DNA from: Bacteroidaceae bacterium
GTDB taxonomy: Bacteria; Bacteroidota; Bacteroidia; Bacteroidales; Bacteroidaceae
Assembly: GCA_017645655.1 (NCBI GenBank)
Contig: JAGCNZ010000130.1
Location: 1-34,012, forward strand
Reading direction: 5' to 3'
Length of the DNA: 34,012 bases
Part shown: piece after piece, positions 1,850 through 29,945 of the stretch
Position numbering within the stretch: position 1 is the first letter of the stretch
How the letters are laid out: each line of letters begins with the position of its first letter
The notes under the pieces: model-generated
What the model was told of the DNA's origin: nothing
The model's input: only the letters and a program-made list of their open reading frames with translations
The model's database searches: none
Made by a program: the position numbers and the translations under genes

Positions 1850-2002
1850 CACGGTGAGATGAAAAACGCAGCACGTGATGTTCGGATTTATAACACGTGA
1901 TGTTTGGAATTATAACACGTGATATTTGAAATATTACACGTGATATTTGAAATTTACCCACGTGATGTTTGAAAGTCAGACACGGCACGTTTGGAAATCA
2001 GG
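1850..2002. repeat. 22-bp tandem CACGTG array 1
   Basis: CACGTG begins at 1872, 1894, 1916, 1937 and 1959, spaced 22, 22, 21 and 22 bp. A decayed unit starts CACGGTGAGATG at 1850, and another starts CACGGCACGTTTGG at 1981. The unit is CACGTG followed by ATRTTTGRAATTTAYM; the middle ATATTTGAAATAT is itself nearly palindromic. Weaker traces with TTTGAGAACTAA extend left to about 1802. The array lies between the terminator of the SusD gene on its right and the promoter of the calycin/dockerin gene on its left. There are no spacers, so it is not a CRISPR array. Confidence 0.9.
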
Positions 2003-2023
2003 CATGCGACACTTACCTTCGGG

Positions 2024-2066
2024 CACAAAAAAAGAGCTGCCTGAGATATTCCCCGGCAGCTCTTTT
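2024..2066 (-). terminator. Rho-independent terminator of the FAS1-SusCD operon
   Basis: AAAAGAGCTGCC (2030-2041) pairs perfectly with GGCAGCTCTTTT (2055-2066) around a 13-nt loop. Read on the minus strand the stem is followed by a run of T (complement of 2027-2033). It lies 18 nt after the stop codon of the last SusD gene and ends the long minus-strand operon. Confidence 0.9.
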
Positions 2067-2083
2067 GCCAATCTTGCTATCTG

Positions 2084-4555
2084 TTATTCCTCGGGAAGGG
2101 GGAGGAACCAGTTGGTCATGTTCTGCAAGCGACTACGGAGTTTGTTGTCCACCTCGCCAGTGCGACGCTTCGAGATGCGCTCTGCCAGATAGTCGGGATT
2201 GCCGCGACGCATAGCCACACGGCAGAGGTCGCTGAAGCGCGTACCCTCGAATGCAAGCTCGAGAGCGCATTCGTCGATGATAAGGTCCTCAACGGCATTC
2301 TGCACTTCATCATCAAACTTGCCGCTGTAGATATCTTCCTCCGTCAGCTCCATGCCTGTTGCCTCCTTAATCTTCTTCTGAACCATATTTACATAGTTGT
2401 AGGAAGAGAGACATCCAGCCGGCTCGTCGAAGCGGATGAAGCCGCAACCACGCTGGTGGATACCCATGGTGAGATACTCATCATTGTTGTCATCAGGATA
2501 GCGCAGGCTGTTGGTGGTCTCGTTGAGCAACTTGCCCTGGTCCTTGATGTAGATGCGCTGACGATTGTTCAAGCCGCGGAGATAAGTCTGCTTGAAGTCC
2601 ATATACGGAGCATTAAGGGCACGCTCCACCTCGCGACGATCCAGATAATTACATGCAACACCGTGACTGCGCACGAGCTTCACGTTGGATGCAGTAGCGG
2701 GAGTGTTCCAGAATGCATCATCATCGGCAGCCGTATAGTAGATTGACTCAAAGTCAACCTCGCGCATAGAGGGCTCCGGCAAAGACTCATCAGGATCCAG
2801 TATGGACTCATACTGTCTCAGAGCTTCTGCATACTCCTCCTCGAAATAAGCTTCCAACCAGGATATCAGGTCATCGAAATGATGTATCTGATTGTCCGTA
2901 TCCCATCCCTCGGGCAGCAGCACGCCGCTTGTATCACGATAGCAATACAGGGAGTCCTTGACTGGATAGTCGAATCCGTTAGAGAACAAATTGGTCAGAC
3001 GGCTCTTCAGGTTCACAGAACTGGGAGCCTCGGGGAACCATTCGGGATAATTGCAAAGGCCAGTCTTGAGGACAGCAAATGCATAGCTGGGATAGCCGGC
3101 ACGGTTCAAAGCCTCAGCATAGCGGAGCCATACAGTGCTCTTGCGATAGATGACGGGATACGTGGTGATGAAACCAGCACGAGGATTCTGCTTGGAAACC
3201 ATCTTGCCATAATAGGTGTCATCGCCAATAAGGTATGTCCATTGGCGACCACGGCCGTTGAAAATCCAGGAACGACGAGCATCGCCGACTCCAGGAAGCT
3301 CCACAAGAGCAGGACTTCCATTGCCCCAGAAATCAGCAGCGCTGACATCGCCCACATAAATCTCGAACTTCTGGCTGTCGCAAAGCGCTTCATAACCCTT
3401 GCTGGGGATAAGCTCGCGCTCATAGTTGGGAGTAAGAATGACCATAGAGGCAATGTCGGACGACTGCTCGACATCACCACTGTTATTAACCGAAATAGAA
3501 GTGTGGAGGCCAGTCGTCATCTCAGCAGTGAAGCCGAACAAGCGGTTGACGTCCGTCATCACCTTACCCTCGAGCTTACCCGTATTGCTGGGAATGCAGG
3601 TAATCATCTCCGTGGAACGGGCCACCTGACCTCTCTCTCCATAAGGAGAACCGGTATAATCGTAGATGGGATAGTCCAGACGCTCATCCAGACGACCAGT
3701 GCTGTAGTAATTGTCCACATCAATAGGACCGCAATAGCGCGTGTTGATGTAGTTGAAGTAGTGCTGCGCTGCATCCACATACTTGCCGCTCAGCAGATAG
3801 AGGTCGCCCAAAACAATAGGAATGGGGAACATGCACCTGCTGCTGTGGCAAACGAAATGGCTGCTGCTGGAGCTGGCATCACCATAGTTGTTGTACTGCG
3901 GCATGCCGTATTCCGAATTCAACTCAAACGCTTCCAGCTTCTCCAGCTCGGGGCCAAGCTCCTCTGCCAGCAACTGGGCAGTGAGCTTCGCATGGTTCTT
4001 GTCGTCCATGAAGTTGTCGATGTCGTCCGTCGTGAGCATGGGCTCCTTGTAGAAAGGCACCCTGTTCTCGCCGTAAGCATACAACAACTGCATGTAAACC
4101 CATGCACGGATAGACTGCACCTGAGCATATTCCTTCATCATGTACAGTTTGTTCGTGCCGGTAGTACGAACAGTGTCACACATAGCGATGTACGCATTAC
4201 AGCTGTTGATGACGTGATAATAGTCTGCAACCTTCAGGTAAGCGCATGCGCCATCCTTCCAGTCTTCAGGGTCTTCCACTTCACCAAAGTTGATAATGGC
4301 GCCGATGGTATCGCTGACGTAACCCGACGCGTCAACCAGGTCACCACGACACTCGTTCAGGATAACATAGCGCTCGGCTATGTTCTGCAGAGACTTGAGG
4401 ATGCCCCAATAGGAATAAAGCGTATCCTCTGCCACGGTATATGCGTGGCGCTCGCTGTCTGGGGAGAGCATGTCTTGGCAAGACGTAGAGAACATACCAT
4501 ACATCATGCTCAGCAATAACATGCTTATGATTGATTTCCTTTTCATCTTATTCAT
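2084..4555 (-). CDS. SusD/RagB-family outer-membrane lipoprotein (second pair)
   Basis: This is the nutrient-binding surface lipoprotein that caps its SusC partner. The frame opens at 4594, but the first 13 codons are an AT-rich heptamer-repeat spacer. The ATG at 4555 (MNKMKRKS) puts the lipoprotein signal in place: a hydrophobic stretch ending FSTSC, with that Cys as the lipidation site. The SusD hallmarks are the N-terminal helical TPR-like region (YMQLLYAYGENRVPFYKEPM) and the C-terminal ECALELAFEGTRFSDLCRVA and NWFLPLPE motifs. At about 823 residues it is longer than most SusD proteins (500-650); the extra sequence lies in the middle and the C-terminal third. It follows its SusC gene by 38 nt and is the last gene before the terminator. 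The ligand cannot be read from the sequence. Confidence 0.9.
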   Translation of the reverse strand: MNKMKRKSIISMLLLSMMYGMFSTSCQDMLSPDSERHAYTVAEDTLYSYWGILKSLQNIAERYVILNECRGDLVDASGYVSDTIGAIINFGEVEDPEDWKDGACAYLKVADYYHVINSCNAYIAMCDTVRTTGTNKLYMMKEYAQVQSIRAWVYMQLLYAYGENRVPFYKEPMLTTDDIDNFMDDKNHAKLTAQLLAEELGPELEKLEAFELNSEYGMPQYNNYGDASSSSSHFVCHSSRCMFPIPIVLGDLYLLSGKYVDAAQHYFNYINTRYCGPIDVDNYYSTGRLDERLDYPIYDYTGSPYGERGQVARSTEMITCIPSNTGKLEGKVMTDVNRLFGFTAEMTTGLHTSISVNNSGDVEQSSDIASMVILTPNYERELIPSKGYEALCDSQKFEIYVGDVSAADFWGNGSPALVELPGVGDARRSWIFNGRGRQWTYLIGDDTYYGKMVSKQNPRAGFITTYPVIYRKSTVWLRYAEALNRAGYPSYAFAVLKTGLCNYPEWFPEAPSSVNLKSRLTNLFSNGFDYPVKDSLYCYRDTSGVLLPEGWDTDNQIHHFDDLISWLEAYFEEEYAEALRQYESILDPDESLPEPSMREVDFESIYYTAADDDAFWNTPATASNVKLVRSHGVACNYLDRREVERALNAPYMDFKQTYLRGLNNRQRIYIKDQGKLLNETTNSLRYPDDNNDEYLTMGIHQRGCGFIRFDEPAGCLSSYNYVNMVQKKIKEATGMELTEEDIYSGKFDDEVQNAVEDLIIDECALELAFEGTRFSDLCRVAMRRGNPDYLAERISKRRTGEVDNKLRSRLQNMTNWFLPLPEE

Positions 4556-4563
4556 TTTAATTA

Positions 4564-4591
4564 TGAATTGTGAATTGTGAATAATGAATTG
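4564..4591. repeat. Heptamer TGAATTG spacer repeat
   Basis: TGAATTG occurs at 4564-4570, 4571-4577 and 4585-4591, with a partial TGAATA between. It fills the SusC-SusD junction and explains why the frame is open upstream of the likely SusD start. It is a simple sequence repeat of the kind often seen between Bacteroidales genes. Confidence 0.6.
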
Positions 4592-4593
4592 CA

Positions 4594-7500
4594 TTAGAGG
4601 TTAATCGAAACACCTACATTGAAGCTGCGTCCACTGGGAATGAGGCCAGTATCCACACCCTGATAGAGAACACCGTTGCGACAGCTCATCTCGGGATCTG
4701 TACCCAGATACTTGGTGATGGTAAAGAGGTTGTTAGCCTCGCCCCACACCTTCAGGCCGAGCAGCCAGCTGTTGCTGTAAGGAATCTTGTAGGTCAGGCG
4801 AACATTCTTGAGCTTGAGGAAACTGCCGTCTTCAATCCAACGGTCGCTCATACGCTCATTGTTGCGCCATTCCTCACTGTCAATGTAGCATGCCTTAGGT
4901 ATGTCAGTCTCCTGACCTTCATACGTCCAGCGACGCAGGACAGCTGTGGTCTGGTTGTAAGTGGTATTCAGACCTTCCAGCTTGCTGCGCTGGTAGTTGT
5001 AGATGTCGTTGCCAAGGCTATACTTGAAGTTGACGTCGAGTCGCAGGTTCTTCCATGTCAGACTGCTATAGATATTACCATAGATGTCGGGATTGGGATT
5101 GCCGATAACCGTCTTATCACTCTCGTCGATAATACCGTCTTGGTTGCGATCCACGAAACGGATATCACCAGCCTTGAAGTCATAATATTGCTTGCCTTCT
5201 TCCTTGAGTCCAGTCGGATACTTAAGGTAGCCGAGCACGCCTGCAGAGCTGGCCTCTGCATCGCTGGACAAGATACCGTCGGTCTGCCAACCCCAGAAGC
5301 TGCCAACTGCTGTACCAACAGCTGTGATGACATTATCCTCGCCATATACACTGGAGGTGTAGCCATGAACGTCAACTGAGTTGCCATTCATGTCCTTCTG
5401 ATAGAAGTGGTTGCTGGGGCTGTCGGGAAGCGCAGTAATCTTGTTGTTGTAGTGGCCAAGGGTTGCGCCCAACTCCCATTTCCAGTTCTTCTTGTTGATA
5501 AGCGCAGCATTGACATTGAACTCGAAGCCGCGGTTGGTAAGGGCACCCTCGTTGGTCCAATACTTCTTCATACCCGACATGTAATGCAGTTCCTTGAGAG
5601 TAAGCAAGTCGGTTGTCTTATTCCAAAAGAGGTCAATACCTGCAGAGAGGCGGTTGTTCAGGAACACACCCTGCAGAGCGACGTTCCACTTCGTTGTGGT
5701 TTCCCACTGAATGGAACTGTTCTCTATATTATTAAGGTAAAGACCAACGGTATTGTTGGTGACCTTCATGCTCTCCCAATATGTGCGGGCAGCATAGTAG
5801 TCGAGGTCGTCGTTACCGCTCTGGTCAAAGCCGGCTGTCAACTTGAGGTAGTTGATGCCTCCTCTGGTATTGGGGAACCACTTTTCATTGCTGATAAGCC
5901 AACCTAACTGAACCGACGGGAAGACACCCCAGCTGACACCACCCAACTGGAAGCCAGACTTGGTGTTCTTACCGAAACGGCTGCTAGACTGCATGCTCAA
6001 GGCAAAGTCTGCGAAGTAACGGTTAGCATAGTTGTAGTTGCCATCAACATAAAGAGCCATGTCAATCCAGTTGTCGTTGGTACCGCCATAATTGAGGTAA
6101 AGCATGTTCTTGTTCATGACTGGCAACTTATCGTTCTCATTGTTGTAACCACGCATGTAGTTGTAACTGTAAGAATAGTTGTTATAACGCCAACCGCCGA
6201 AGACATTGATGGTGTGCGCGCCATAGATGTTGCGCCAGTCGAGACGCAGATCGTTCTGAAGAGTTGTCTCCTTAGAGAAGAGTGTCTTCTGCACGGCATT
6301 GATGTCGCCCAAATCCTTGAGGAAGTAATTAGTCGTACCACTGACTGGCAGGAAGTACTTCTCGCTGTTGCGCGTCATCAGGAAGTTGAAGCGGTCGCTG
6401 ATGCTGAACGTCTTCGTCACTTGGTACTTAGGACTGACATTCAGGTCAATCTGGGTGCACTGCGCATAATTCTTGTTCTCACCGGGACCATTCTGTAAAA
6501 TCCAATAAGGATTACGGAGAGCCTCGTTGATACCCTTATCTCCAAGACGGAGGGGGAACTGGAAAGGATTGATTATCCAATTGGCATCATGATTGCTTGC
6601 ATACTTACCAGCATAGTCCTTCGACAATGCCAGGCGATCGCTGGAGTACTGCTCCGTGGAATTCTCATCATAATAATACGCATATGGACTGATAAAGGGA
6701 GCCTGAATGAGACCGAGCACATTGGTCGAACCGATGTTCTGCATGCTGTAGTCCTCGCTCCATCCACTATCAAGAATGTCATAGCTGACTTGATTGTAAG
6801 CAATGTCCAGTCCTGTACGCAACTTCTTAAAGACCTCAATGTCAGTGTTGAAACGGAGATTCAGACGATCGAAGTCTGTACCCTTGCCAGTTGACTTGCC
6901 ACTGGTATAACCCAAGGAGAGTGCATACATGCCGACCTCATCACCACCCTCGACGTTAATCTTGTAGTTCTGGGTCATGGCATTACGATACATGTCCTTT
7001 TGCCAATCGGTGTTGTTGCTGAACACCTTGCGATAGTAGTTGGACGGACTCTTGTCCAAGAAAGCATATCGGCTAAGACTGCTTGCTGACATGTTCTTGA
7101 TAGTGCTGACCATATCACTCAGATAAGTACTATACTCATCGCCGCTGAGAACAGGAAGCTTCTTGGGAGCAAGCTCCACACCACCATAGATGCGCACACC
7201 AATCTTCGTTGCCATGCTCTTACCACGCTTGGTAGTAATCTTGATGACGCCATTGCCACCCTTAGCACCATAAAGTGCTGTTCCGTTCTTGATAATCTCC
7301 ACCTTCTCGATGTTGTCGGGATCAATGCCAGCAAGAAGGTTGTTGTAGAAACCTTCATGCATGGTCACACGGTCATACTGGGGGTCAATCATGTTGCCGT
7401 CCAGGATGATGAGAGGCTGTGCATTGGCATTGATAGAGTTCACACCACGAATGGTCATGTAAGAACCAATGCCAGGAATACCGTTGCGCAAGATAGTACG

Positions 7501-8025: not shown

Positions 8026-8055
8026 AATTCTGCTATCGTATTACTATGGGACAAG

Positions 8056-10068: not shown

Positions 10069-10110
10069 ATTATGTATGTCTTTTATAACTGATTCACTTT
10101 TATAACTCTC

Positions 10111-12081: not shown

Positions 12082-12094
12082 AGTCGTCACAATT

Positions 12095-19000: not shown

Positions 19001-19050
19001 CGTTTTTTTTAACGAAATGCGACATATACATTAAGAAAACGCGTCCTTTT

Positions 19051-19365: not shown

Positions 19366-19453
19366 AAGGCATTTGAGGTAGAGAAACAAAGAATTTGAGA
19401 TAGAAAAACGAGGCGTTTGAGGTAGAGGGACGAGGCATTTGTGAAAAAGGAAA
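19366..19453. repeat. 22-bp tandem array 4 (divergent unit)
   Basis: Four units start at 19366, 19388, 19410 and 19432, each exactly 22 bp. The consensus is RAGGCRTTTGAGG followed by TAGAGRRAC; the last unit is decayed (TTTGTGAAAAAGG). The core RTTTGA and the period match the CACGTG arrays, but CACGTG is absent. It lies beyond the terminator hairpin of the leftward protease gene, as arrays 1-3 do for their genes. No gene is seen in the surrounding 18920-19532 interval; the small open frame there looks like a by-product of the repeats. Confidence 0.8.
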
Positions 19454-19469
19454 GGGTGTATGAAGAAAG

Positions 19470-19506: not shown

Positions 19507-19532
19507 ACTTGTTCAGAACAGCCCGATTTGCA

Positions 19533-21821
19533 TCAGTGCGCTATGTGGATTTTACCATCCCTGAGGTAGACGCCGCGCCGAGGAACGCGATGGAGGCGAT
19601 GCCCCGACAGGTCGTAGATTGCGCTGTCTGACGTGTGACTTTCATTCACCTCATTTACTGGAGCTGCGATGTCAACGTCCAGCCAGTCTGTCCAATCCGA
19701 TGTTCCTTCATCACAGACGGCTTGAACGCGATAATAGTACATGTCCGACTCCAAGGGTTCGATGACGAAACTGGTTGTGGTCAGTCCCGTATAAGTCATA
19801 AGGCTGCTACCCGTTCCGCTCATATCCAAAATGTTTACATTATAGAGGTAAAAGCGCTTCTTTTTCTCCGTTGAAGCGAACTTGACTTTACACCCTGTGG
19901 GAACATCATCGAAGGTGCAACTGTAGGTGGCACTCTCGGCAGCAAGCTGAACCGTTTGAGTGCCGATGGTTTGGTTGCCGTCGAGCACAGAGACGACGAT
20001 GCTGCTGCCGTCCTGATTAAAATCTGCTGCGTCGAACTCCACGACGAGTGTGCCCGGTTCGTTCTGAATGGCGGGAGTGGTGATGTATCCGCACACCTGA
20101 GCGGAAGAGACACGCACCGACGCCTCGCCTGTGCCGAAGAGTCCTGATGCGCTCCAGCCCGTGGTTTGCATGTACCTGTCCAGTATGCTGTTACTGATGG
20201 TAGAGCCCACACCGACTTCGCTGCACTTGGAGAAATTTTCGGAAAGGCATGAGGCGGGAGCAGGTGCTCCACTCACCGCTTCCACTTGCAGCGTGTAGCT
20301 TGTGGCACCCTCGACAGGCATCCAGTTGGCAGTGAACGAGTTTGCCGAGATATTTGTCGGAGGTGCAAGGAAAGGTGTCGGCAGCACGATGAGTTCGCCA
20401 TAGACGAAGTTTATCTTGCCGTCGGGCGTCTCGGAGATGCTGTGAATGAGGTTCGAGTGGGTCTTTGGTCCGTTCTTCTCGGCGATGAACCACGTGAGTT
20501 GCGGCACTTCGCTCACGCCTTGCAGGCCGGGATAAGGGTCGCCAGCCTCATCGTTGGCAGAGATTTGATACTGGTATGTACCATCATCGTTTCTTTTAAG
20601 GATGCCGACCTGGCCGTCGGCAGGCAGGAAAGTCATGCGCTGATGGTCTTTATATATGTTGACGGCATTGTTTCTCCAAGCCGTCTGGTCGTAGTCGATG
20701 TGCCATACCATGAGGCCGTGACCGCGGTTGCCGGAGCCGAAGGTTGTCTGCTGACGGTTTTCCAGGATGTAGTATTCGTTGTCGTTACCGGTGTTTCGAA
20801 TGATGTAGGCAACGCCCTCGACGTTGATGGCCGGCATGTCTGTCACCTTGCAAGGCTCGGTGAGGGGAATGACGTCCATCCATCCGGCAGCCCAGCGTTC
20901 GTAGGCAGTATAGGGCGAAGGCACTTCGCCGATGTTTTGCGGCCCGTTGTAACTGCCGCCGTCGAGTAGGTCCCAGTTCTGCGCGGCAGTTCCTCCAGTG
21001 TATTCCGCGTCATAGAAGTCCGGGTAGCCGAGGCAATGACTGAACTCGTGACAGGCCGTCCCGATGCCTTCGAGTGTGGTGGAACTGACAAGTTCATTGG
21101 ATACCGCGTAAGTGTCAATGAGCACGTCATCCAGTCTTTGCTTGCCCGAGCCGTTGCCCCAGAGCCTTGCGCTCTCCAGACTCCATTCGTGCGGCCAGAT
21201 GTAGCCTGGTGTGTTGAACTTGGTTATGCCGGCATAGATGACATAGACCTGGTCCACGAATCCGTCGCCGTCCCAGTCGTAGTTGGCATAGTTGACTTCA
21301 GGATTGGCGAGTTGCAAGGCTTCGATAACCATTTCGGCAGCACGGTCGTCGAGGTTGCTGTTGGGTGGCGAGCCGTAGTACTCGCGAGTGTTGGAAAGGG
21401 TGAGTGGGCCGACGACATCGAAGTCGATGGTCAGCAAGCCGTAGCTCTGCTCGAAGAAATAGTCGCGCACGGAGCCTACGTGATTGTAGAGCGAGAAGCC
21501 CTGCTGGTTGAAGCGGTCATTCCATTGGCTGGCCGCGCCGTCTTTCAACTTGCCCTCAGCGTCGGAGAATTCCACGAGCAGCACGAGTCCCTTCTTCGTC
21601 TCGGCTTGTGTCTGAGCGCGCCATGGGCCCTGGCGATGGCGGAGTGCGATGTTGGCCTGGCGCATCTTCTCGAGGCGTGCCAACCTTCGTTCGTTGACTC
21701 CTGGCAGGCGGTGTGTGTGGTGATTGCTGCGCTGGGGAGTCTCCCTGACCAGAGGCTGTGCGCCGACGGAGAGGCCAGTAAGGAGCACGACAATCAGTAT
21801 GACGAGTTTTTTTCTAAACAT
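19533..21821 (-). CDS. Secreted M6-family zinc metalloprotease
   Basis: The product has 762 residues. A signal peptide (1-21, LLTGLSVGA) and an Arg-rich propeptide-like stretch (about 25-75, PQRSNHHTHRLPGVNERRLA) precede the catalytic domain (about 78-420). The zinc site is HEFSHCLGYPD (H258, E259, H262, D268), the M6/immune-inhibitor-A pattern HExxHxxGxxD. DWDGDGFVD (182-190) looks like a calcium loop. The later part has a fibronectin-III-like segment (NISANSFTANWMPVEGATSY), a jelly-roll-like region and a second FN3-like strand set. The tail IYDLSGHRLHRVPRRGVYLR is the short C-terminal motif common on secreted Prevotella proteins. It is probably an extracellular or surface endoprotease; the substrate is unknown. 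It is divergent from the kinase gene at 21908. Confidence 0.88.
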   Translation of the reverse strand: MFRKKLVILIVVLLTGLSVGAQPLVRETPQRSNHHTHRLPGVNERRLARLEKMRQANIALRHRQGPWRAQTQAETKKGLVLLVEFSDAEGKLKDGAASQWNDRFNQQGFSLYNHVGSVRDYFFEQSYGLLTIDFDVVGPLTLSNTREYYGSPPNSNLDDRAAEMVIEALQLANPEVNYANYDWDGDGFVDQVYVIYAGITKFNTPGYIWPHEWSLESARLWGNGSGKQRLDDVLIDTYAVSNELVSSTTLEGIGTACHEFSHCLGYPDFYDAEYTGGTAAQNWDLLDGGSYNGPQNIGEVPSPYTAYERWAAGWMDVIPLTEPCKVTDMPAINVEGVAYIIRNTGNDNEYYILENRQQTTFGSGNRGHGLMVWHIDYDQTAWRNNAVNIYKDHQRMTFLPADGQVGILKRNDDGTYQYQISANDEAGDPYPGLQGVSEVPQLTWFIAEKNGPKTHSNLIHSISETPDGKINFVYGELIVLPTPFLAPPTNISANSFTANWMPVEGATSYTLQVEAVSGAPAPASCLSENFSKCSEVGVGSTISNSILDRYMQTTGWSASGLFGTGEASVRVSSAQVCGYITTPAIQNEPGTLVVEFDAADFNQDGSSIVVSVLDGNQTIGTQTVQLAAESATYSCTFDDVPTGCKVKFASTEKKKRFYLYNVNILDMSGTGSSLMTYTGLTTTSFVIEPLESDMYYYRVQAVCDEGTSDWTDWLDVDIAAPVNEVNESHTSDSAIYDLSGHRLHRVPRRGVYLRDGKIHIAH

Positions 21822-21849
21822 ATTTAATATATCTTACGTGTTGCGAGGG

Positions 21850-21857
21850 CAAATATA
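21850..21857 (-). promoter_or_regulatory. -7 box of the M6 protease gene
   Basis: The minus strand reads TATATTTG, a TAnnTTTG match, placing initiation near 21843 and giving a leader of about 22 nt. No good TTG is visible at the -33 distance. It is back to back with the kinase promoter. Confidence 0.45.
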
Positions 21858-21867
21858 TAAAGAATTA

Positions 21868-21899
21868 TTTGATTTTTCAGCATAAAGGTCGTACCTTTG
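21868..21899 (+). promoter_or_regulatory. Promoter of the ThiD/PdxK-like kinase gene
   Basis: TTTG (21868-21871), a 20-nt spacer and TACCTTTG (21892-21899) fit the Bacteroidetes consensus fully. The usual start 6-8 nt downstream falls at about 21906, only 2 nt before the ATG at 21908, so the mRNA would be leaderless or nearly so. AAAGGT-CGT-ACCTTT (21884-21898) is a perfect dyad over the -7 box. Confidence 0.75.
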
Positions 21900-21907
21900 C
21901 GCCCTGA

Positions 21908-22675
21908 ATGGAGAAAAAAGTAAATACAGGCAAGGTTTTCCTGATTGCAGGAAGCGAACCATTGGGCAGCGCCGGTGTCCAGGCGGACATCAAGGCGATT
22001 ACGCGTTGCGAGGGCTGGGCTGCAGCCGCACTGACCTGCATTGTCGACGAGGACGTGCATCGCATCAAGGGCATCCACCACTTGCCCACCGACCTGATAG
22101 TCTCGCAGGCCGAGTCGTTCCTGAGCACCGTGGGAGCGGACTGCATCAAGACCGGCATCCTGCCCACCGAGGAAATCATCCGGGCCGTGGCCGGCGTGCT
22201 TCGACGCTACAACAAGCAACCCATCCTCATCGACCCGGTCATCGTGAATTTCGCGGGCGAGCAACTGGTCAGCGACGAAGCCATCTCGGCCTACAAAAAC
22301 GAGCTCTTCCCCCTCGCCACACTCATCACGCCGAACGTCCGCGAAGCCGAGTTCCTACTCGGGCACAGCATCAGCCAGCCGGAAAGCGACTTGAAGACGC
22401 TCGCCGGATGGGGTTGCAGCGTGCTGGTGAAAAGCGTGGACGAGGGAAAGTACCTCGTGGACTACCTCTACGACGCTGCCTCCGGAACGCTTACCCCCCA
22501 CCCTAAGAAGAAACTTGTGCTGGACGACCGCAACGGCACGGGCGACACCTTGGCCAGCGCCATCGCGACGCATCTGGCGAAAGGCGACGACCTGGCGACC
22601 GCCGTCATGCGCGCCGAAGCCTATATGAACTACTTCCTGGCGGGACCGCGCTACTATATCAGCGCCGACCTCTAA
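21908..22675 (+). CDS. ThiD/PdxK-like phosphomethylpyrimidine or pyridoxine kinase
   Basis: The product has 255 residues, the usual length for this ribokinase-superfamily group. It reads AGSEPLGSAGVQADIKA (about 14-30), the counterpart of the substrate-binding AGxDxxGGAGIQADLK motif of ThiD. It continues with KTGILPT (81-87), DPVIV (109-113), TPNVREAEFLLG (141-152) and the anion-hole motif NGTGD (209-213). ThiD phosphorylates hydroxymethylpyrimidine and its monophosphate for thiamine synthesis; relatives phosphorylate pyridoxine or pyridoxal. Two features are atypical: EPLGSAG in place of the glycine-rich DxxGGAG, and Asp in GTGD where many ThiD proteins have Cys. No thiamine gene is nearby, so the substrate is left open. 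The start codon is fixed by the promoter just upstream. Confidence 0.85.
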   Translation: MEKKVNTGKVFLIAGSEPLGSAGVQADIKAITRCEGWAAAALTCIVDEDVHRIKGIHHLPTDLIVSQAESFLSTVGADCIKTGILPTEEIIRAVAGVLRRYNKQPILIDPVIVNFAGEQLVSDEAISAYKNELFPLATLITPNVREAEFLLGHSISQPESDLKTLAGWGCSVLVKSVDEGKYLVDYLYDAASGTLTPHPKKKLVLDDRNGTGDTLASAIATHLAKGDDLATAVMRAEAYMNYFLAGPRYYISADL

Positions 22676-22695
22676 GGCCTGACAGAAACGCCCGG

Positions 22696-22810
22696 CGCAG
22701 GTAGACCTAAAACGCAACACGTGACGATTGAAATCTACCCACGTGATAAATTCATTTTACCCACGTGATATTTGAAATATTACACGTGATATTTTCATTT
22801 TACCCACGTG
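22696..22810. repeat. 22-bp tandem CACGTG array 2
   Basis: CACGTG begins at 22718, 22740, 22762, 22783 and 22805 (spacing 22, 22, 21, 22). A decayed leading unit (22696-22717) ends AAAACGCAA, much like the decayed leader of array 1 (AAAACGCAG). The 33 bases at 22762-22794 are identical to 1916-1948 of array 1. The last unit runs directly into the terminator hairpin. The array fills the space between the convergent kinase and Wzc-type genes, and its strand orientation is the same as in arrays 1 and 3. Confidence 0.9.
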
Positions 22811-22823
22811 ACGTTTACAAACA

Positions 22824-22855
22824 CAGCGTGCCATGTTTTTCAACACGGCACGCTG
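22824..22855. terminator. Bidirectional terminator hairpin between the kinase and Wzc-type genes
   Basis: CAGCGTGCC (22824-22832) pairs perfectly with GGCACGCTG (22847-22855) around a T-rich 14-nt loop. It lies 16 nt beyond the stop of the leftward Wzc-type gene. T-runs are weak on both sides, so its efficiency is uncertain. ACACGGCACG in the right arm also occurs at the right end of array 1. Confidence 0.65.
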
Positions 22856-22871
22856 CTCTTATAAATTTCCC

Positions 22872-25340
22872 TTATTTCTCAGTGTGTCCCAGGCCTTCCT
22901 GAGCACCGTACCGGCCATAGATGCCGTAGTGCCCATAGCGTCCCTTGCCTATGCCATACTTGCCGTAAGTGCCGTACTTGCCATACCTGCCATAGCCGTA
23001 ATAGTAGCCATACTTCTTCTTACGCATGTCGATAGCGTTGAGGACGAGGTTGACCTTGGGCAACTTGTTCTCCTCCTTGAAGCTGTTGATGAGGTCGAAG
23101 TTGCCACGCGGACTGTAGTCGGCACGGCACACGAAGAGGCTCATGTCGGCCACACGGCCGATAGAAAGCGTATCGCTCACCAGTCCGACAGGCGGCGTGT
23201 CGAGCAGCACATAGTCGTAGTGCTCCTTGAGAAGCTCAATGGCATGGTCGAGCTGCTCGCGCGAGATGAGTTCGCCCGGGTTGGGAGGAATGATGCCGGC
23301 GGGCAACACGTCGAGGTTGGCGTTGGCCACACCGTGGACAATCTGCGACTCGAGCGCTTCGTACGACCCGTCGTTGCCGGAGAGGAAGGTCGTGATGCCC
23401 TTCTTGTCGGCAGGGATATTAAACAGTTTGACGAGTCTCGGCTTGCGGATGTCGAGGCCAACAACAATGACCTTCTTGCCCATCAAGGCAAGCGACATCG
23501 CCAGGTTGGTGCAGACAAACGTCTTGCCCTCGCCAGGGATACAGCTGGAGCAAAGGATGACCTTCTCGTTCCCCTCGAGGATGAAGCGCAAGTTCGTGCG
23601 GAGGCCTCGGAAAGCCTCCTCCATCGAGTCGTTCGTATTCTCGCGGACCACGAGCGCTTTCTCGCCGTCTACCGTCTTGCCAGCCAGCGGAATGTCGGCC
23701 AGCACACTTATCTTCGTCAGCTTCTCCACATCTTCGCGTCCCTCGATACGATAGCGGAACAAGTCCTTCAAGAAGAAGAAAGCGATGGGCAAACCCAGGC
23801 CGAGCAACAAAGCAATGAGCCATATAATGTTACGCTTGGGCGACACCTGTCCCCTCAGCTGCGGAGAGTCAATGATGCGCGCCTTGGCTGCAGTACTTGC
23901 CAAGGAGATGTAGTTCTCCTCACGCTTCTGGAGAAGCATCAGGTAAAGGTTGGCCTTGATTTCCTGCTGACGGCTCATGTTCGTCAAAGCACGCTCCTGT
24001 GTCGGGGTGCTGCTGATGCGGCTGCTGTACATCGAGTACTGCCTGTCGGCGCTCGACTTCTGCGTCATCACGTCGTTGCGGATGGCATCGAGGCTCATCC
24101 TGATGGAGGGCCACATCTCCTCAAGCTGAGACGTAAGGTTCTTCACATAAGGATTGTCCTCGCTCGACGACTTGAGCAAACGGTTCCTCTGCAGGACAGC
24201 ATCGTTGTAGCGGGCAATAGTGGCATTCAGGCTGGCGTCGGCCAGACCCAGGTTAGCCGGGATGACCTGCATGGCGTTGGCAGGATTGTTCACATAATTG
24301 ACGAGCGCATTGATGAGGTTGAGCTGCGTCTCGAACTCCACCTGCTTCTTCTGGTACTCCGTCGTGCTTGAAAGCGCCGTCGTAGCATCATTGGCCAGAT
24401 TGATGAGTTCGTTGCTCTTCTTGTATTGCTCGAGCTCGCCTTCCGTCACGTCCAGCTCGCCACGAATATCGTCGATACGAGCCTTGATGAAGTCGCCGGT
24501 CTTCATGGCGACCTCGTTCTTGTCCTCGTTCGCGTCGTCGTTGTAGCACTTGAGCAACTCGTTCAGATAGTCAATCGAACGGCCGACCTGCGTATCGGTG
24601 AAGGACACCTGTGCCACGGTAGTGAACTTGCTTGTTGGTCCGGCAGAGAGTCGTCCTCTGTACATGCGAGCGGCAGTCTCGATGGGAAGGATGGTGGCAT
24701 AGAGCTTCTCGTCCTTCCACCTGCTGCCCGGGTTCTGCTGCAAGATGATGACACCCATCGGCGTGTTGATGCTGCCCGGCAACTTCTTGACGTCATGGTC
24801 GAAGGTTACAGGCTCGCTCTGTCCCGCCATTCGCACCTTGCCCGACACATGCAAGCCCTTGTCCGCCTTGGTCATCGCCAACTCGATAGGCGTCCTCAGC
24901 ACCGTAAGCTGATGCTGCGGCATATCCACGATGATGGGATTGTTCTGGTACTGCTCTATCTTCTGGACACGGCCCTCAATGGCATAGCTGACATAAAGCT
25001 TCAGCGACTTCACAACGCGACTGTTCACATTGGTACTGGTCAATATCTCAAGCTCGTTGTCGAAGCCGTTACTATTCGAGATGATACCCATATCCTCGAG
25101 ATTCATCTGACCACTCCTGGACCAGCGCTTGCCTTCCTCATCTTTAATCAGCACCTTCATTGCCGAAGTATAGACGGGCTTCGTGTAGCGAAGGTAACAA
25201 AAAGCTATGCCGAGTGCAATGATGGTGGACAACAAAATCCACTGCCAGTTAAGCACTATGATGGTCCATATCGCAGAAAGAGTAATACCACCAGACTCTT
25301 CTTCCTTCTGTAATTCCTCGTTCACAACGTAATCTGCCAT
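22872..25340 (-). CDS. Wzc-type exopolysaccharide co-polymerase and tyrosine autokinase
   Basis: The product has 822 residues. Membrane segments at about 24-50 and 504-524 flank a Wzz-type periplasmic region with a coiled-coil part (about 270-480, including SSTPTQERALTNMSRQQEIK, the GNVR-like segment). The cytoplasmic BY-kinase domain carries Walker A SSCIPGEGKT (598-607), Walker A' VIVVGLDIRKPR (624-635) and Walker B YVLLDTPP (710-717). The tail from about 776 has 13 tyrosines in YG-type steps (KYGYYYGYGRYGKYGTYGKY and on), the expected autophosphorylation cluster. Such proteins control chain length and export of capsule or exopolysaccharide with an outer-membrane Wza. The gene is divergent from a sugar-phosphotransferase gene that would start the same kind of polymer. 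No Wza-like gene is in the window. Confidence 0.92.
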   Translation of the reverse strand: MADYVVNEELQKEEESGGITLSAIWTIIVLNWQWILLSTIIALGIAFCYLRYTKPVYTSAMKVLIKDEEGKRWSRSGQMNLEDMGIISNSNGFDNELEILTSTNVNSRVVKSLKLYVSYAIEGRVQKIEQYQNNPIIVDMPQHQLTVLRTPIELAMTKADKGLHVSGKVRMAGQSEPVTFDHDVKKLPGSINTPMGVIILQQNPGSRWKDEKLYATILPIETAARMYRGRLSAGPTSKFTTVAQVSFTDTQVGRSIDYLNELLKCYNDDANEDKNEVAMKTGDFIKARIDDIRGELDVTEGELEQYKKSNELINLANDATTALSSTTEYQKKQVEFETQLNLINALVNYVNNPANAMQVIPANLGLADASLNATIARYNDAVLQRNRLLKSSSEDNPYVKNLTSQLEEMWPSIRMSLDAIRNDVMTQKSSADRQYSMYSSRISSTPTQERALTNMSRQQEIKANLYLMLLQKREENYISLASTAAKARIIDSPQLRGQVSPKRNIIWLIALLLGLGLPIAFFFLKDLFRYRIEGREDVEKLTKISVLADIPLAGKTVDGEKALVVRENTNDSMEEAFRGLRTNLRFILEGNEKVILCSSCIPGEGKTFVCTNLAMSLALMGKKVIVVGLDIRKPRLVKLFNIPADKKGITTFLSGNDGSYEALESQIVHGVANANLDVLPAGIIPPNPGELISREQLDHAIELLKEHYDYVLLDTPPVGLVSDTLSIGRVADMSLFVCRADYSPRGNFDLINSFKEENKLPKVNLVLNAIDMRKKKYGYYYGYGRYGKYGTYGKYGIGKGRYGHYGIYGRYGAQEGLGHTEK

Positions 25341-25390
25341 GTTTACTATAAGTTTGTGTTGTTATATCGCCTAATAATCCAATCAGCGTG

Positions 25391-25415
25391 CAAAGATACA
25401 AATTATTATAATAAT
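25391..25415 (-). promoter_or_regulatory. Wzc-type gene promoter with palindrome in the spacer
   Basis: The minus strand has TATCTTTG (25391-25398), predicting a start near 25384 and a 44-nt leader. Immediately upstream ATTATTATAATAAT (25402-25415) is a perfect 14-bp palindrome lying where the -7/-33 spacer would be. A TTG at the -33 distance is not evident. Confidence 0.5.
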
Positions 25416-25468
25416 GATAAAGAAATTAAGCGAAAAATTGTCTTTAACGGAGTTTTATCTGTCGTTCC

Positions 25469-25501
25469 TTGCAATTTATTGTATAAATTGTCGTAACTTT
25501 G
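25469..25501 (+). promoter_or_regulatory. Sugar-phosphotransferase promoter with dyad operator
   Basis: TTG (25469-25471), a 22-nt spacer and TAACTTTG (25494-25501) form a Bacteroidetes promoter. The spacer is almost wholly a perfect dyad, CAATTTAT-TGT-ATAAATTG (25472-25490), well placed for a repressor or other regulator. Predicted initiation is near 25508. Confidence 0.6.
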
Positions 25502-25511
25502 CCTACGGACT

Positions 25512-26864: not shown

Positions 26865-26909
26865 TGTGAGATAAGTAAACAGTAAATAGCAAAAAAGTAA
26901 ACCAACATC

Positions 26910-27539
26910 ATGTCTATATTCAGTAAACTCTTTGGCAAGAATAATAAGGACGATCAGCAGACAAAGGCTGGCGGCATGGAGGACTTCATGCTCTTGATTC
27001 GCGTCTATTATCAGGCAGTCATGGCATCGCAGCTCGGCATCAACAATCTCGGCGCATTGCCAGACCTTCGCATCTTCAAGCAAACCTACCGTGTCGCTAC
27101 AGTTAACAACAAGCTTGGCATTGCCGAGAAGAAACATTGCCGCAAGCTTATGCAGGACATCTATGGCATCAGCGACGGCTTCTTTGTGGAGATAGACGGC
27201 AGCATTCGCAAGCACTGTCGCAAGATACAAGATGCACAGAGCTATCTCGTCCAATTCCAAGGTTTCAGCCAAGACCTGATGATGCTGATGGGCAACCTCA
27301 TGCAATGGAAGATGAGACTGCCAAGCTTCTTCCGCGGAGCGCTTCGTGAGATGACGGCAAAGCAGGTGCATCAAGTCCTCACAAAGAACGATTGGAAGGA
27401 CGAAGGCGTACGTCGCGCATGTGTTTCCGTCCGCAAATATCAGAACGTGCTTGGCTACACCGAGCAGTGGATGACGGAGTACGTACATACGATTGTTATG
27501 CTTGCAAAGAAGGAGCCAAAGAAAAATAGTGAGCAATAA
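26910..27539 (+). CDS. Conserved hypothetical protein, 209 aa
   Basis: I do not recognise the family. The protein starts MSIFSKLFGKNNKDDQQ, has no signal peptide or membrane segment, and is predicted mostly helical with many basic residues. A central part (KHCRKLMQDIYGISDGFFVE) contains a His-Cys pair that recurs as KHCRKIQ about 25 residues later. It ends with a charged tail KKEPKKNSEQ. It follows the sugar transferase by 45 nt with no promoter seen between, so it may be co-transcribed with it. The next gene has its own promoter in the 56-nt gap. A cytoplasmic role is the only safe inference. Confidence 0.8.
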   Translation: MSIFSKLFGKNNKDDQQTKAGGMEDFMLLIRVYYQAVMASQLGINNLGALPDLRIFKQTYRVATVNNKLGIAEKKHCRKLMQDIYGISDGFFVEIDGSIRKHCRKIQDAQSYLVQFQGFSQDLMMLMGNLMQWKMRLPSFFRGALREMTAKQVHQVLTKNDWKDEGVRRACVSVRKYQNVLGYTEQWMTEYVHTIVMLAKKEPKKNSEQ

Positions 27540-27541
27540 AC

Positions 27542-27572
27542 TTGCATAATACAAAAAAAAGTATTATCTTTG
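27542..27572 (+). promoter_or_regulatory. Promoter of the zapB-like/zapA/rny operon
   Basis: TTG (27542-27544), a 20-nt spacer and TATCTTTG (27565-27572) match the Bacteroidetes consensus. Initiation near 27579 gives a leader of about 17 nt before the ATG at 27596. The -33 element overlaps the end of the upstream gene. Confidence 0.75.
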
Positions 27573-27595
27573 CCCGCAAATTGAGTTAATTCGTC

Positions 27596-27895
27596 ATGAA
27601 TCAGGAACTGAAAGACCTCATCACACGCCTCGAGACACGCGTCAGGCAGCTCATCATGCAGCAGGATCAGCTGCAGGAAGAGCTCGTGAAAGTGCGTGCG
27701 CAGCTCGGCGAGAAGGGAGACGAGATACAAAAGCTTCAGGCTCAGAACGAAGAACTCAAGCAGCAATACAGCCGTCTGAAGATGGCTAAGTACATCGACA
27801 TGGCCGACAACGACGTCAAAGACATGCGCGGCCGCATACGAACGATGGTGCGCGATATTGACCGGTGCATCTCTATGCTTAAAGTAACACAGTAA
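27596..27895 (+). CDS. Small coiled-coil protein, ZapB-like
   Basis: The product has 99 residues, almost wholly coiled coil: regular heptads run through LKDLITRLETRVRQLIMQQD to about residue 62 (EELKQQYSRLKM). A conserved C-terminal helix follows (DVKDMRGRIRTMVRDIDRCI). A short coiled-coil protein just before ZapA in Bacteroidales is likely a ZapA partner at the division ring, like ZapB, but the similarity is structural and positional, not a sequence match I can verify. It starts the operon and is 6 nt upstream of the next gene, which implies translational coupling. Confidence 0.75.
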   Translation: MNQELKDLITRLETRVRQLIMQQDQLQEELVKVRAQLGEKGDEIQKLQAQNEELKQQYSRLKMAKYIDMADNDVKDMRGRIRTMVRDIDRCISMLKVTQ

Positions 27896-27901
27896 CAGAT
27901 T

Positions 27902-28192
27902 ATGGATGACACCCTTTCAATAACTCTCCACTTCGGTTCATGGACTTTGCCCATGACCATCAAGCGCGACGAAGAATATGTCTATCGTCAGGCTGAGAAG
28001 CTTATCAAGGAGAGGTTCAACTTCTATACAGGCAGCTATCCCGGACAGAGTTCAGAGATGTATCTGTTGATGACTATCCTTGACATTGCCGTGCAGAGCA
28101 AGCGTCATGAGACCACCAACGATGCAGGACCGGTGTTGCAGGCTCTCCGGCCGCTGCTCACGGAAGTCGAGGCCGCACTCATCAAGTCGTAA
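27902..28192 (+). CDS. zapA: Cell division protein ZapA
   Basis: The product has 96 residues, a typical ZapA length. The N-terminal beta part (LSITLHFGSWTLPMTIKRDE) leads to the family's RxAEKLIKERFNFY helix and a long C-terminal helix (MTILDIAVQSKRHETTNDAG on to LTEVEAALIKS). ZapA binds FtsZ and bundles its filaments at midcell; in Bacteroidetes it is commonly found next to rny. It lies between the coiled-coil gene (6-nt gap) and rny (41-nt gap), all in one direction. Nothing anomalous was seen. Confidence 0.85.
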   Translation: MDDTLSITLHFGSWTLPMTIKRDEEYVYRQAEKLIKERFNFYTGSYPGQSSEMYLLMTILDIAVQSKRHETTNDAGPVLQALRPLLTEVEAALIKS

Positions 28193-28233
28193 GAGTGAGT
28201 GACCCCGAGTATTAACAACAAACTTTTTTTTAC

Positions 28234-29796
28234 ATGACAATTCCTATTATAGTTGCCCTTCTGGTTGCTATCGTAGCCTTCTTTGCCCTTGTGGCTGTGT
28301 GGTACTTCATTGTGGTGCCAGTCAAGAGAAAGGCGCTTGCCGAGGAGGCTCGCGAGACAGCCGAGAAAGAGGCAGAAGTCATCAAGCAGAAGAAGCTGCT
28401 TGAGGTGAAGGAGAAGTTCCTGAGCAAGCGCACAGAACTGGAAAAGGAGGTGCGCCAGCACAATCAGCAGATACAGCAGAGCGAGAACCGCATCAAGCAG
28501 CGTGAGATGCAGCTCAACCAGAAGCAGGACGAACTGACTCGCCGCAAGCAGGAAGCCGATGCTCAGCGCCAGCGCATGGAGACGCAGCAGGCACTTCTCG
28601 AGAAGAAGGAGGAGGAGGTGAATGCTCGCTTCTCTGACCTCATCAATCAAGAGCGCACTAAGCTCGAGGAGATTTCCGGGCTGAGCGTTGAAGAGGCTCG
28701 CGAGCGCCTCATTGAATCTTTGAAGGACGAAGCGAAGACCAACGCTGCCGCCTATATCAACGAGATTATGGACGATGCACGCATGACGGCCACGAAGGAG
28801 GCAAAGCGCATCATCATCCAAAGCATTCAGCGCGTCGCTACGGAAACAGCTGTCGAGAACTCCGTCACGGTGTTCCACATCGACGACAACGATGTGAAGG
28901 GACGCATCATCGGTCGCGAGGGACGCAACATTCGCGCCCTGGAAGCTGCAACTGGCGTGGAAATCGTGGTCGACGACACACCTGAGGCAATCGTCATCAG
29001 CGCCTTCGACCCCATCCGTCGCGAGGTGTGCCGCCTGGCACTCCACCAGCTGGTGACCGACGGACGCATCCATCCTGCTCGCATCGAGGAGGTCGTGGCA
29101 AAGGTCAAGAAGCAGATCGAGGAGGAAATCCTCGAGGTGGGCAAGCGCACCACCATCGACTTGGGCGTGCACGGCCTGCACCCCGAACTGGTTCGAATCA
29201 TAGGCAAGATGAAGTATCGCAGCAGCTACGGACAGAACCTCCTGCAGCATGCGCGAGAGACTGCCAACCTCTGTGCCGTCATGGCAAGCGAGCTGGGTCT
29301 CAATCCGAAGAAGGCAAAGCGCGCTGGCTTGCTGCACGACATCGGCAAGGTGCCCGACGAGGAACCCGATCTGCCGCACGCTCTCTATGGCGCAAAGCTT
29401 GCGGAGAAGTACAAGGAGAAGCCGGAGATATGCAACGCCATCGGCGCGCACCACGATGAGATGGAGATGACGACACTGCTCGCTCCCATCGTGCAGGTCT
29501 GCGATGCCATCAGCGGTGCCCGTCCCGGTGCTCGTCGCGAGATTGTCGAGGCATACATCAAGCGCCTCAAAGACTTGGAAGACATCGCCATGAGCCACCC
29601 GGGAGTGGTCAAGACTTACGCCATCCAGGCCGGTCGCGAACTGCGCGTCATCGTTGGTGCCGACAAGATTGACGACAAGCAGACTGAGCAGTTGAGCACC
29701 GAGATTGCCACGAAGATACAGAACGAAATGACGTATCCCGGACAGGTCAAGATTACGGTCATCCGCGAGACACGCTCGATTGCATACGCCAAATAG
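28234..29796 (+). CDS. rny: Ribonuclease Y
   Basis: The product has 520 residues, matching the family. One N-terminal membrane helix (about 4-27) is followed by a long charged coiled coil (about 33-160), a KH RNA-binding domain with [13 protein letters not shown] (223-235) and [10 protein letters not shown], and an HD domain. The HD metal residues include H339 (LQHARET) and the pair in [12 protein letters not shown] (H368, D369), with AHHDEME near 405. It is a membrane-attached endoribonuclease that initiates mRNA decay. It is third in the zapB-like/zapA/rny unit. Its stop codon is directly followed by array 3 and a strong hairpin, so its own mRNA 3' end would carry the repeats. Confidence 0.97.
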
Positions 29797-29797
29797 T

Positions 29798-29945
29798 CAC
29801 GTCGAAAAACTAAGCACGTGACGTTTGAAAACTAAGCACGTGATAATTGCAATTTACCCACGTTAAAATAAAATTTATCCACGTGATAATTGCAATTTAC
29901 CCACGTGATAATTTCAATTTACCCACGTGAGGTTTGAAAACCAAG
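29798..29945. repeat. 22-bp tandem CACGTG array 3
   Basis: CACGTG starts at 29815, 29837, 29880, 29902 and 29924. CACGTT at 29859 is a one-base variant, and a shortened leader CACGTCGAAAAACTAAG is at 29798. Spacings are 17, 22, 22, 21, 22 and 22. Internal units read CACGTGAT then AATTGCAATTTACC, with the palindrome AATTGCAATT. End units instead read CACGTGAC or CACGTGAG then GTTTGAAAACYAAG. The array begins 2 nt after the rny stop and ends at the terminator hairpin shared with recA. Confidence 0.92.

What the first reader, a model, noticed from the sequence alone, without database searches (positions are those of the whole stretch)
1850..29945. Dispersed family of 22-bp CACGTG tandem arrays placed beyond gene terminators
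Seen directly: three intergenic arrays (1850-2002, 22696-22810, 29798-29945) repeat CACGTG every 21-22 bp for five to seven units, all in the same orientation. Each lies immediately past the hairpin that ends a leftward gene (last susD, wzc-like, recA). The period equals about two helical turns, so all palindromes face the same side of the helix. Inference: phased binding sites for an abundant DNA-binding or nucleoid protein, a transcription or supercoiling boundary between convergent genes, or an RNA 3'-end element. I know of no named element of this form in Bacteroidales, but I could not search.
Basis: partly seen in the sequence, partly recalled or inferred. Interest (0 to 1): 0.82.

Follow-up and report, generated by a model that had tools for sequence, protein, structure and literature searches.

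The report
Phased 22-bp palindrome arrays between genes
Gaps between genes in this bacterium and its relatives hold short tandem arrays of palindromes spaced about two DNA turns apart; the letters change between species while the spacing, and often the position, stay, which points to a repeat class whose fixed feature is its geometry.

Summary
The three arrays are real and belong to roughly 175 in this genome (276 phased CACGTG triples, reversed control 0; 182 copies of a 21-bp central unit). They lie between genes, mostly beside a gene 3' end, without orientation preference. CACGTG is not the invariant: congeners carry 22-bp arrays, partly at the same gene junctions, with other palindromes (CACGTT, CACGCC, TCATGA, ACATGT, CCCTATAGGG). 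Period 22, with 21, leads among tandem repeats in most Bacteroidales sampled, but not outside the order or in E. coli. At nine G000/G128 junctions the CACGTG core is 86% identical among loci of its own genome, yet no more like the orthologous G128 gap than shuffled sequence. In G128, TCATGA cores sit inside older arrays in 22-bp register. Best reading: a REP/BIME-like class of non-autonomous palindromic repeats with a two-turn register, nested invasion and species-specific sweeps. The enzyme is unknown: a RAYT-type domain was not found in CACGTG-rich genomes, but four ACATGT-bearing genomes have one. A boundary or scaffold role at 3' ends is unproven; arrays are missing at 5 of 15 orthologous junctions.

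The parts
1850..2002 (+). array 1: five exact CACGTG (1872-1964) plus degenerate edge units; steps 22,22,21,22
1916..1942 (+). central 21-bp unit of array 1 (CACGTGATATTTGAAATATTACACGTG), one of 182 copies in the genome at up to 2 mismatches
2030..2067 (-). hairpin with T-run ending the leftward SusD-like gene (2084-4594); array 1 lies beyond it
   Evidence: (read by eye), Pfam
22718..22810 (+). array 2: five CACGTG, steps 22,22,21,22, between a kinase gene (+, 21908-22675) and a Wzc-like gene (-, 22872-25340)
22762..22788 (+). central 21-bp unit of array 2
22824..22855 (.). hairpin CAGCGTGCC...GGCACGCTG next to array 2, resembling edge units
   Evidence: read by eye
29815..29929 (+). array 3: five exact CACGTG and one CACGTT (29859), the 21-bp step after 29859, between rny (+, 28234-29796) and recA (-, 30021-31049)
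29946..29978 (.). terminator-like hairpin between array 3 and recA; a like hairpin precedes the array in G128, G008, G112 and G094, with the first hexamer 17-19 nt from it in all five
   Evidence: read by eye
19367..19441 (+). 22-bp tandem array of another sequence (AGGCATTTGAGGTAGAGAAACG, 3.4 copies) in the gap at the 3' end of the leftward gene 19533-21821
33742..33835 (.). 22-bp palindromic array of the GGACT..AGTCC / CCCAC.GTGGG type inside the N-terminal part of a DUF5715 gene, outside the Pfam domain

Best explanation
The arrays belong to a Bacteroidales class of non-autonomous intergenic palindromic repeats with a fixed geometry: short palindromes repeated every 22 bp (or 21), two DNA turns, in units of unrelated sequence. 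Shown: arrays keep their place between genes over species divergence at many but not all junctions; in G128 TCATGA (and some ACATGT) cores lie inside older arrays in 22-bp register; one near-identical core is shared by roughly 175 loci of this genome, and of two patterns counted other congeners are rich in the other one (ACATGT in G020, G035, G005). Inferred: copies move between loci through a protein that reads dyads in two-turn register, so that incoming cores land at a dyad of a resident array and keep phase; the 3'-end preference is mostly purifying selection against insertion in genes and promoters. Any host function (3'-end boundary, DNA-protein scaffold) would be secondary.
For: 182 near-identical central units (in the sample 109 units at 105 loci) inside diverse phased edges: outside the 21-bp unit, whose columns are fixed by my selection, conservation falls from about 1.5-2 bits in the neighbouring units to near 0 about five units out. 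Core identity within the genome 0.86, to the orthologous G128 gap 0.43, shuffled 0.43 (9 of 10 shared loci). 10 of 15 array-bearing conserved junctions also have a 22-bp array in G128, with other units. recA junction in register in five species (by eye). TCATGA cores: CACG or CGTG at exactly -21 in 6 of 7 elements, and at +23 in the 2 of 7 that show one on the right; ACATGT: +23 in 2 of 6, no left-hand tetramer in any of the 6. Period 22 in 786,984 unselected bp of G128: 94 arrays, next 20 at 14 bp, 4 at 21. ACATGT type in 14 of 121 genus genomes, own included, and in 0 of 60 others of the phylum.
Against: No enzyme was tied to the arrays, and no target duplication or clean empty site was found. 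Y1_Tnp (PF01797) was not found in G000, G128, G012, G075, G112, G094 or G008; its four strong hits (E below 1e-15) are in G027, G088, G035 and G013, all ACATGT carriers, but none of the four genes has ACATGT repeats at its sides. Long conservation of position with phase could mean host function instead of parasitism. In this genome's family the dyads show no covariation. Two of six other Bacteroidales genomes sampled showed no 21-22 bp array. Gene calls come from my own codon-model caller; most genomes used are drafts.
Confidence: 0.55

Rival explanations
1. Host-functional phased protein scaffolds: an abundant DNA-binding protein assembles on two-turn dyad arrays at transcription-unit ends and acts as roadblock, supercoiling sink or domain boundary.
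For: 21-22 bp period kept over unrelated sequences, register across type boundaries, 3'-end bias, conserved positions, terminators found more often at array-facing 3' ends (36 of 122 on either side of the array) than in gaps without arrays (10 of 79).
Against: Several unrelated palindrome types coexist in one genome, hard for one sequence-reading protein. Arrays absent at 5 of 15 orthologous junctions; at the KDPG junction two species have an 18-bp gap and two a 117-bp gap without array. Divergent gaps also hold some (5 of 36).
Confidence: 0.22
2. RNA or single-strand hairpin elements: arrays act as, or are copied through, long hairpins, for transcript 3'-end stability or single-strand (RAYT-like) transposition.
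For: In the ACATGT family the middle dinucleotides are complementary in 14 of 26 elements against 4.2 in shuffles (0 of 20,000 reach it), six pair types; with nine complete elements, 17 of 35 against 5.7; inner dinucleotides 0 of 35 against 5.1, as for an open apex. Four of four strong Y1_Tnp hits among 27 clade genomes fall in ACATGT-bearing genomes (chosen after the fact; 0.0009 by chance for 4 of 4 within the 6 richest), and one of the four genes (G013) lies 183 bp from a 22-bp array of another type. Windows with arrays 2 and 3 fold better than shuffles (z -5.8 to -7.6, adjoining hairpins included).
Against: The middle-position signal sits in G005, G088, G013, G113 (14 of 17); 0 of 9 in G027, G132, G112, and 2 of 8 in G128. 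Pairing inside single units is rarer than in shuffles (4 of 69 against 10.6). No pairing excess in the CACGTG family. ACATGT-bearing G128 and G005 have no Y1_Tnp hit. A strict period is not expected of independent RNA hairpins.
Confidence: 0.15
3. Plain minisatellites: slippage and unequal exchange at intergenic hairpins, with no mobile or functional side.
For: Unit number varies 4-6 at the recA junction while edges stay; homogeneous middles and degenerate edges.
Against: Does not explain one core at roughly 175 loci, nor why unrelated units keep 21-22 bp while 20 and 23 are nearly empty.
Confidence: 0.08

Closest known systems
REP / BIME / REPIN elements with RAYT transposases
   Same: High-copy extragenic palindromes, clustered, species-specific types, hybrid clusters (PMC2817692: start of abstract in a listing, and passages).
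   Different: Here a 21-22 bp head-to-tail register kept across unrelated sequences and type boundaries in phase; no Y1_Tnp hit in the CACGTG-rich own genome and six other array-bearing genomes. For the ACATGT family a Y1 link stays open.
BrickBuilt MITE of Porphyromonas gingivalis
   Same: Intergenic tandem repeats (23 nt) inside a leader and tail, 19 copies in one strain, another Bacteroidales genome (PMC4596501: abstract, sections 5 and 8, part 1 of section 7, and passages read).
   Different: Unit of 23 nt and other sequence, IS5-like terminal repeats, up to 22.8 units, reported there in P. gingivalis and P. gulae only. A shared leader was seen at only a few CACGTG arrays.
Iteron arrays of plasmid origins
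   Same: Direct repeats spaced about two helical turns (recalled, from no call).
   Different: Here chromosomal-type contigs with roughly 175 loci, at gene 3' ends, many sequence types.
parS / Noc sites
   Same: parS has a CACGTG centre (recalled).
   Different: parS is GTTT-CACGTG-AAAC (recalled); here the flanks are inverted (AAAC....CACGTGA.GTTT) and the sites are arrayed.

Membership tests
REP/BIME with RAYT | extragenic, high copy | tested here: met
   103 of 104 arrays outside called genes (own caller); 182 central units
REP/BIME with RAYT | imperfect palindromic unit | tested here: met
   129 period-22 arrays of ten congeners: mean 14.3 of 22 dyad matches against 11.5 shuffled, 45 of 129 at p<0.05; period-14 arrays as control 6.97 against 6.94, 1 of 29
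REP/BIME with RAYT | cognate RAYT (Y1 transposase) in the genome, flanked by the repeats | tested here: inconclusive
   CACGTG/type I: not met, no PF01797 hit in G000, G128, G012, G075, G112, G094, G008 (drafts incomplete). ACATGT family: Y1_Tnp hits in G027, G088, G035, G013, none flanked by ACATGT repeats; no hit in G128, G005
REP/BIME with RAYT | GTAG/CGTC tag next to the stem | not tested
   -
BrickBuilt | 23-nt unit with IS5-like terminal repeats | tested here: not met
   steps in 104 arrays: 226 of 22 bp, 92 of 21, 5 of 20, 27 double steps of 43-45, none of 23 although allowed; published consensus differs; terminal repeats not searched for
CRISPR | constant repeat, unique spacers, cas genes | tested here: inconclusive
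   the stretches between hexamers are near-constant, not unique; cas genes not searched
known structured RNA | match to an Rfam family | tested here: not met
   0 matches in the window at gathering score; other loci not searched
intrinsic terminator | hairpin followed by T-run | tested here: inconclusive
   none found between stop and array or in 150 bp beyond it for 86 of 122 facing 3' ends; the array interior beyond 20 bp from its edges was not scanned

The most novel reading that the evidence does not exclude
A two-turn DNA register, not a sequence, is the conserved feature: an order-wide system in which any palindrome family can occupy phased 21-22 bp slots at transcription-unit ends, exchanged in phase by genome-wide sweeps, read by a protein family that measures dyad spacing.
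Probability: 0.25. Interest if true: 0.9.

Novelty: new variant of a known kind. Interest (0 to 1): 0.74.

Why it matters
If right, one genus of Bacteroidales offers a natural series in which the same chromosomal sites have been rewritten with different palindromes while helical phase was kept. That would make two open questions testable: what moves REP-like repeats where no RAYT is found, and whether bacterial intergenic palindromes are selfish DNA or protein scaffolds. It also bears on why gaps in this genome are long: 22 of 26 tandem gaps of 250-500 bp in the long stretches hold an array by the loose criterion.

Tried and rejected
RAYT mobilisation of the CACGTG family: no PF01797 hit in the own genome or six other array-bearing genomes. 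On rechecking I saw that the four strong Y1_Tnp hits lie in ACATGT-bearing genomes; the genes' sides hold no ACATGT array (two single ACATGT inside L348, none in the other three), so this is a lead, not a finding. It raised the hairpin rival from 0.12 to 0.15. parS reading: flanks in the wrong order. Whole-array hairpin in the CACGTG family: no axis with excess pairing. Local hairpins: one within-unit column pair (51/60, 74% against 48% expected) that may just separate unit types. Orientation relative to genes: none. Rfam: nothing in the window. Empty sites at C67 2604, C90 10912 and C17 85867, by eye: no clean edges. Dinucleotides of the TCATGA family by eye: 2 of 21 complementary in the long-hairpin register, no support. 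Order-wide CACGTG triples: 3 of 295 genomes including the own one, reversed control 5 of 295, so outside the genus CACGTG triples are no commoner than the control.

Papers: BrickBuilt paper read as stated under Closest known systems; PMC5771137, PMC3733652 and PMC2817692 by passages; PMC2267715 searched for five terms without a passage; all others only as search listings. Searches that showed no description of 21-22 bp palindrome arrays in Bacteroidales: (listings, partly capped; subscription papers not covered).

Rows dropped and biases: four arrays at stretch ends and one inside a called gene are not among the 99, 8 of 104 arrays without a recognisable central unit or full flanks, 1 of 10 shared loci, one N-containing hit. 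One of the 15 junctions carries a TCATGA array in G000, not a CACGTG one. Several congener stretches and three were chosen because they held known arrays; the 40 G128 stretches were not (first 20 kb of contigs 1-40). In some searches I left out two listed exact places by mistake (67 of 69); one search repeats the test with all 69 exact places of the listing, which was cut; one-mismatch places are left out there. The 26 elements are those with two neighbouring exact places. The eight G035 places were left out because their units are not palindromic there. One search took 6 of the 7 ACATGT loci.

Full report
What is there. The window holds three arrays of CACGTG at 22-bp steps with one 21-bp step each. 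The genome (G000, 2.74 Mb, 130 contigs, 84% complete) has 276 phased triples CACGTG-N15/16-CACGTG-N15/16-CACGTG; the reversed pattern has none. A 27-bp central unit, CACGTGATATTTnAAATATTmCACGTG, occurs 182 times at up to two mismatches, its reversed control never. I took stretches around listed arrays plus four long contigs and the window (612,590 bp) and found 104 arrays with at least three chained exact hexamers; their steps are 226 of 22 bp, 92 of 21, 5 of 20 and 27 double steps. In that sample 109 central units lie at 105 loci, which for 182 units suggests roughly 175 loci.

Architecture. 96 of the 104 arrays were aligned on the 21-bp unit, whose own columns are therefore fixed by selection. 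Beside it conservation stays at about 1.5-2 bits in the neighbouring units and falls to near zero about five units out on either side, still in 22-bp phase; outer units read roughly CACGnGAnGTTTnnAAAC. So a nearly constant core sits in degenerate, phased edges.

Placement. With a simple codon-model gene caller, 103 of 104 arrays are intergenic; of 99 with both neighbours, 62 lie in tandem gaps (31 and 31 by orientation), 30 convergent, 7 divergent. In 375 kb of long stretches arrays (strict criterion) occupy 14 of 33 convergent, 24 of 205 tandem and 5 of 36 divergent gaps; for gaps of 120-500 bp the figures are 12 of 16, 24 of 51 and 3 of 22, though arrays themselves lengthen gaps. Intrinsic terminators were found between stop and array for 27 of 122 facing 3' ends and beyond the array for 10 (one end has both), 86 have none; in gaps without arrays 10 of 79 ends have one; shuffled sequence gave 1 of 122.

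CACGTG is not the point. At the recA-rny junction, five of the 30 loci printed (G000, G128, G008, G112, G094) have a 22-bp array that starts 17-19 nt from a like hairpin, with 4-6 units and other or partly other hexamers (read by eye); other loci have a different neighbour, another array or none. Of 77 gene junctions conserved between the G000 sample and G128 (median protein identity 89%), 15 hold an array in G000 (one of them of the TCATGA type); 10 of these also do in G128 with different units, 5 do not, and none of the other 62 has one in G128 only (the G000 sample is enriched for arrays). For nine parsable cores, best ungapped identity is 0.86 to other loci of the same genome, 0.43 to the orthologous G128 gap, 0.44 to other G128 gaps, 0.43 to shuffled gaps; the outermost 45 bp of the gaps are 0.57 against 0.47 shuffled. 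The C8 junction shows the core lying between edge units recognisable in both species (by eye).

Several types, one register. In about 1.17 Mb of ten congeners, period 22 gives 130 arrays, the next periods 30 (14 bp), 12 (21) and 11 (24); most come from G128, whose 786,984 unselected bp give 94 at 22 against 20 at 14 and 4 each at 21 and 24. G113 is an exception (1 at 22, 3 at 21). Units fall into families: CACGTT/CACGCC/CACGTG with GTTTGCAAAC; TCATGA with ATTTAATTAAAT; TACATGTA with TGCAATTGCA; CCCTATAGGG; GCGSCCGCC; TCGCGA; GGACT/AGTCC. Dyad symmetry exceeds shuffled units (14.3 against 11.5 of 22; 45 of 129 individually at p<0.05), which period-14 arrays do not (6.97 against 6.94) and the 11 period-21 arrays hardly do (10.6 against 9.7). 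Several G128 hits cluster in one region (L285) and may be coding. Nine of ten TCATGA elements have three hexamers. In 6 of the 7 from G128 a CACG or CGTG starts exactly 21 bp before the first hexamer; on the right it starts 23 bp after the start of the last in the 2 of 7 that show one; both mean 22 bp between dyad centres. Two elements show a second left-hand tetramer (-16, -26). Of six ACATGT elements two show the right-hand tetramer at +23 and none a left-hand one. At the KDPG aldolase/symporter junction, nine of 23 relatives' loci keep the gene pair: G128 has TCATGA, G035 a TCATGA hybrid, G088 an ACATG-type palindrome with long matching arms, G075 four CACGTT-like units in an 87-bp gap, G112 and G094 an 18-bp gap, G024 and G012 117 bp with a hairpin, G138 a 733-bp gap not resolved (by eye).

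Spread. CACGTG triples: 9 of 36 other genus genomes in the first sample, 19 of 33 genomes chosen mostly for RecA similarity; in the order 3 of 295 including the own genome, reversed control 5. ACATGT pattern (up to one mismatch): 14 of 121 genus genomes, own included, and 0 of 60 others in the phylum, with 91, 86 and 45 hits in G020, G035 and G005 against 1 in G000; these three have 0, 4 and 4 CACGTG triples against 276. So, of two patterns counted, different congeners are rich in different ones. In 400 kb from six other Bacteroidales genomes and one congener, period 22 gives 10 and 21 gives 5, every other period from 12 to 40 at most 1; without the three stretches chosen because they held CACGTG triples it is 6 and 3. 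G285 (60 kb), G042 (40 kb) and the congener G130 (20 kb) had none; whether these arrays are intergenic was not tested. Outside the order (20 stretches, 328 kb) 14 gives 6, 21 gives 5 (simple-sequence-like by eye) and 22 gives 1; E. coli K-12 (200 kb) none at either.

Mechanism. The two-turn period across unrelated sequences, the register at type boundaries and the trans-locus identity of cores argue for a process acting on DNA dyads in helical register and copying cores between loci. Y1_Tnp, the domain of the RAYTs that are proposed to move REPs, was not found in G000, G128, G012, G075, G112, G094 or G008. But 13 of 27 clade genomes have it, and its four strong hits lie in G027, G088, G035 and G013, all among the six genomes of that set richest in ACATGT; the association was noticed afterwards, the genes have no ACATGT arrays at their sides, and one (G013) lies 183 bp from a 22-bp array of another type. 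Evidence on hairpins is split. The CACGTG family shows no pairing covariation. In the ACATGT family the middle dinucleotides are complementary in 14 of 26 elements (4.2 in shuffles, 0 of 20,000 reach it; six pair types), in G005, G088, G013 and G113 but not in G027, G132 and G112; adding nine complete elements it is 17 of 35. Inner dinucleotides are never complementary (0 of 35, 5.1 expected), and pairing within single units is rarer than in shuffles (4 of 69 against 10.6). The shuffles ignore relatedness. A single-strand or cruciform intermediate in some lineages is therefore possible.

Known relatives. Nearest in kind are REP/BIME elements and, in P. gingivalis, the BrickBuilt MITE; what I read of them does not describe this register across types. 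Nine searches of the open-access library showed no description.

Organism. 

Noticed in passing
window 33742-33835: A 22-bp palindromic array (GGACT/AGTCC type) lies inside the N-terminal part of a DUF5715 gene, outside the Pfam domain; similar arrays occur at another locus of this genome and in G128.
   Followed up: partly
window 19367-19441: A 22-bp array of purine-rich units without evident dyads in the gap at the 3' end of an M6-peptidase-like gene.
   Followed up: no
L138, L168, L190, L212, L220: A shared 'leader' (GGTGCTAAAGCATCCAAG or close variants) directly precedes several CACGTG arrays; a C-run/G-run unit (CCCCCTAAAGGGGG) follows others, partly in tandem.
   Followed up: no
L290, L297, L313 and G000 C17 near 91301: A 22-bp element GCGSCCGCCAAAA... 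of about four units keeps much of its unit-by-unit differences between loci and species, unlike a slipping minisatellite.
   Followed up: no
L349 1048-1219 and 1402-1857: In G013 a Y1_Tnp-type gene lies 183 bp from a 22-bp array of yet another unit (GCTCACGAGYCRTYGGCCATAA); L348 (G035) has a 22-bp array one gene away from its Y1 gene.
   Followed up: partly
recA junctions of G113, G013, G109 (L248, L251, L238): Another dispersed hairpin built of CACGAATT-like repeats recurs beside recA in several congeners.
   Followed up: no
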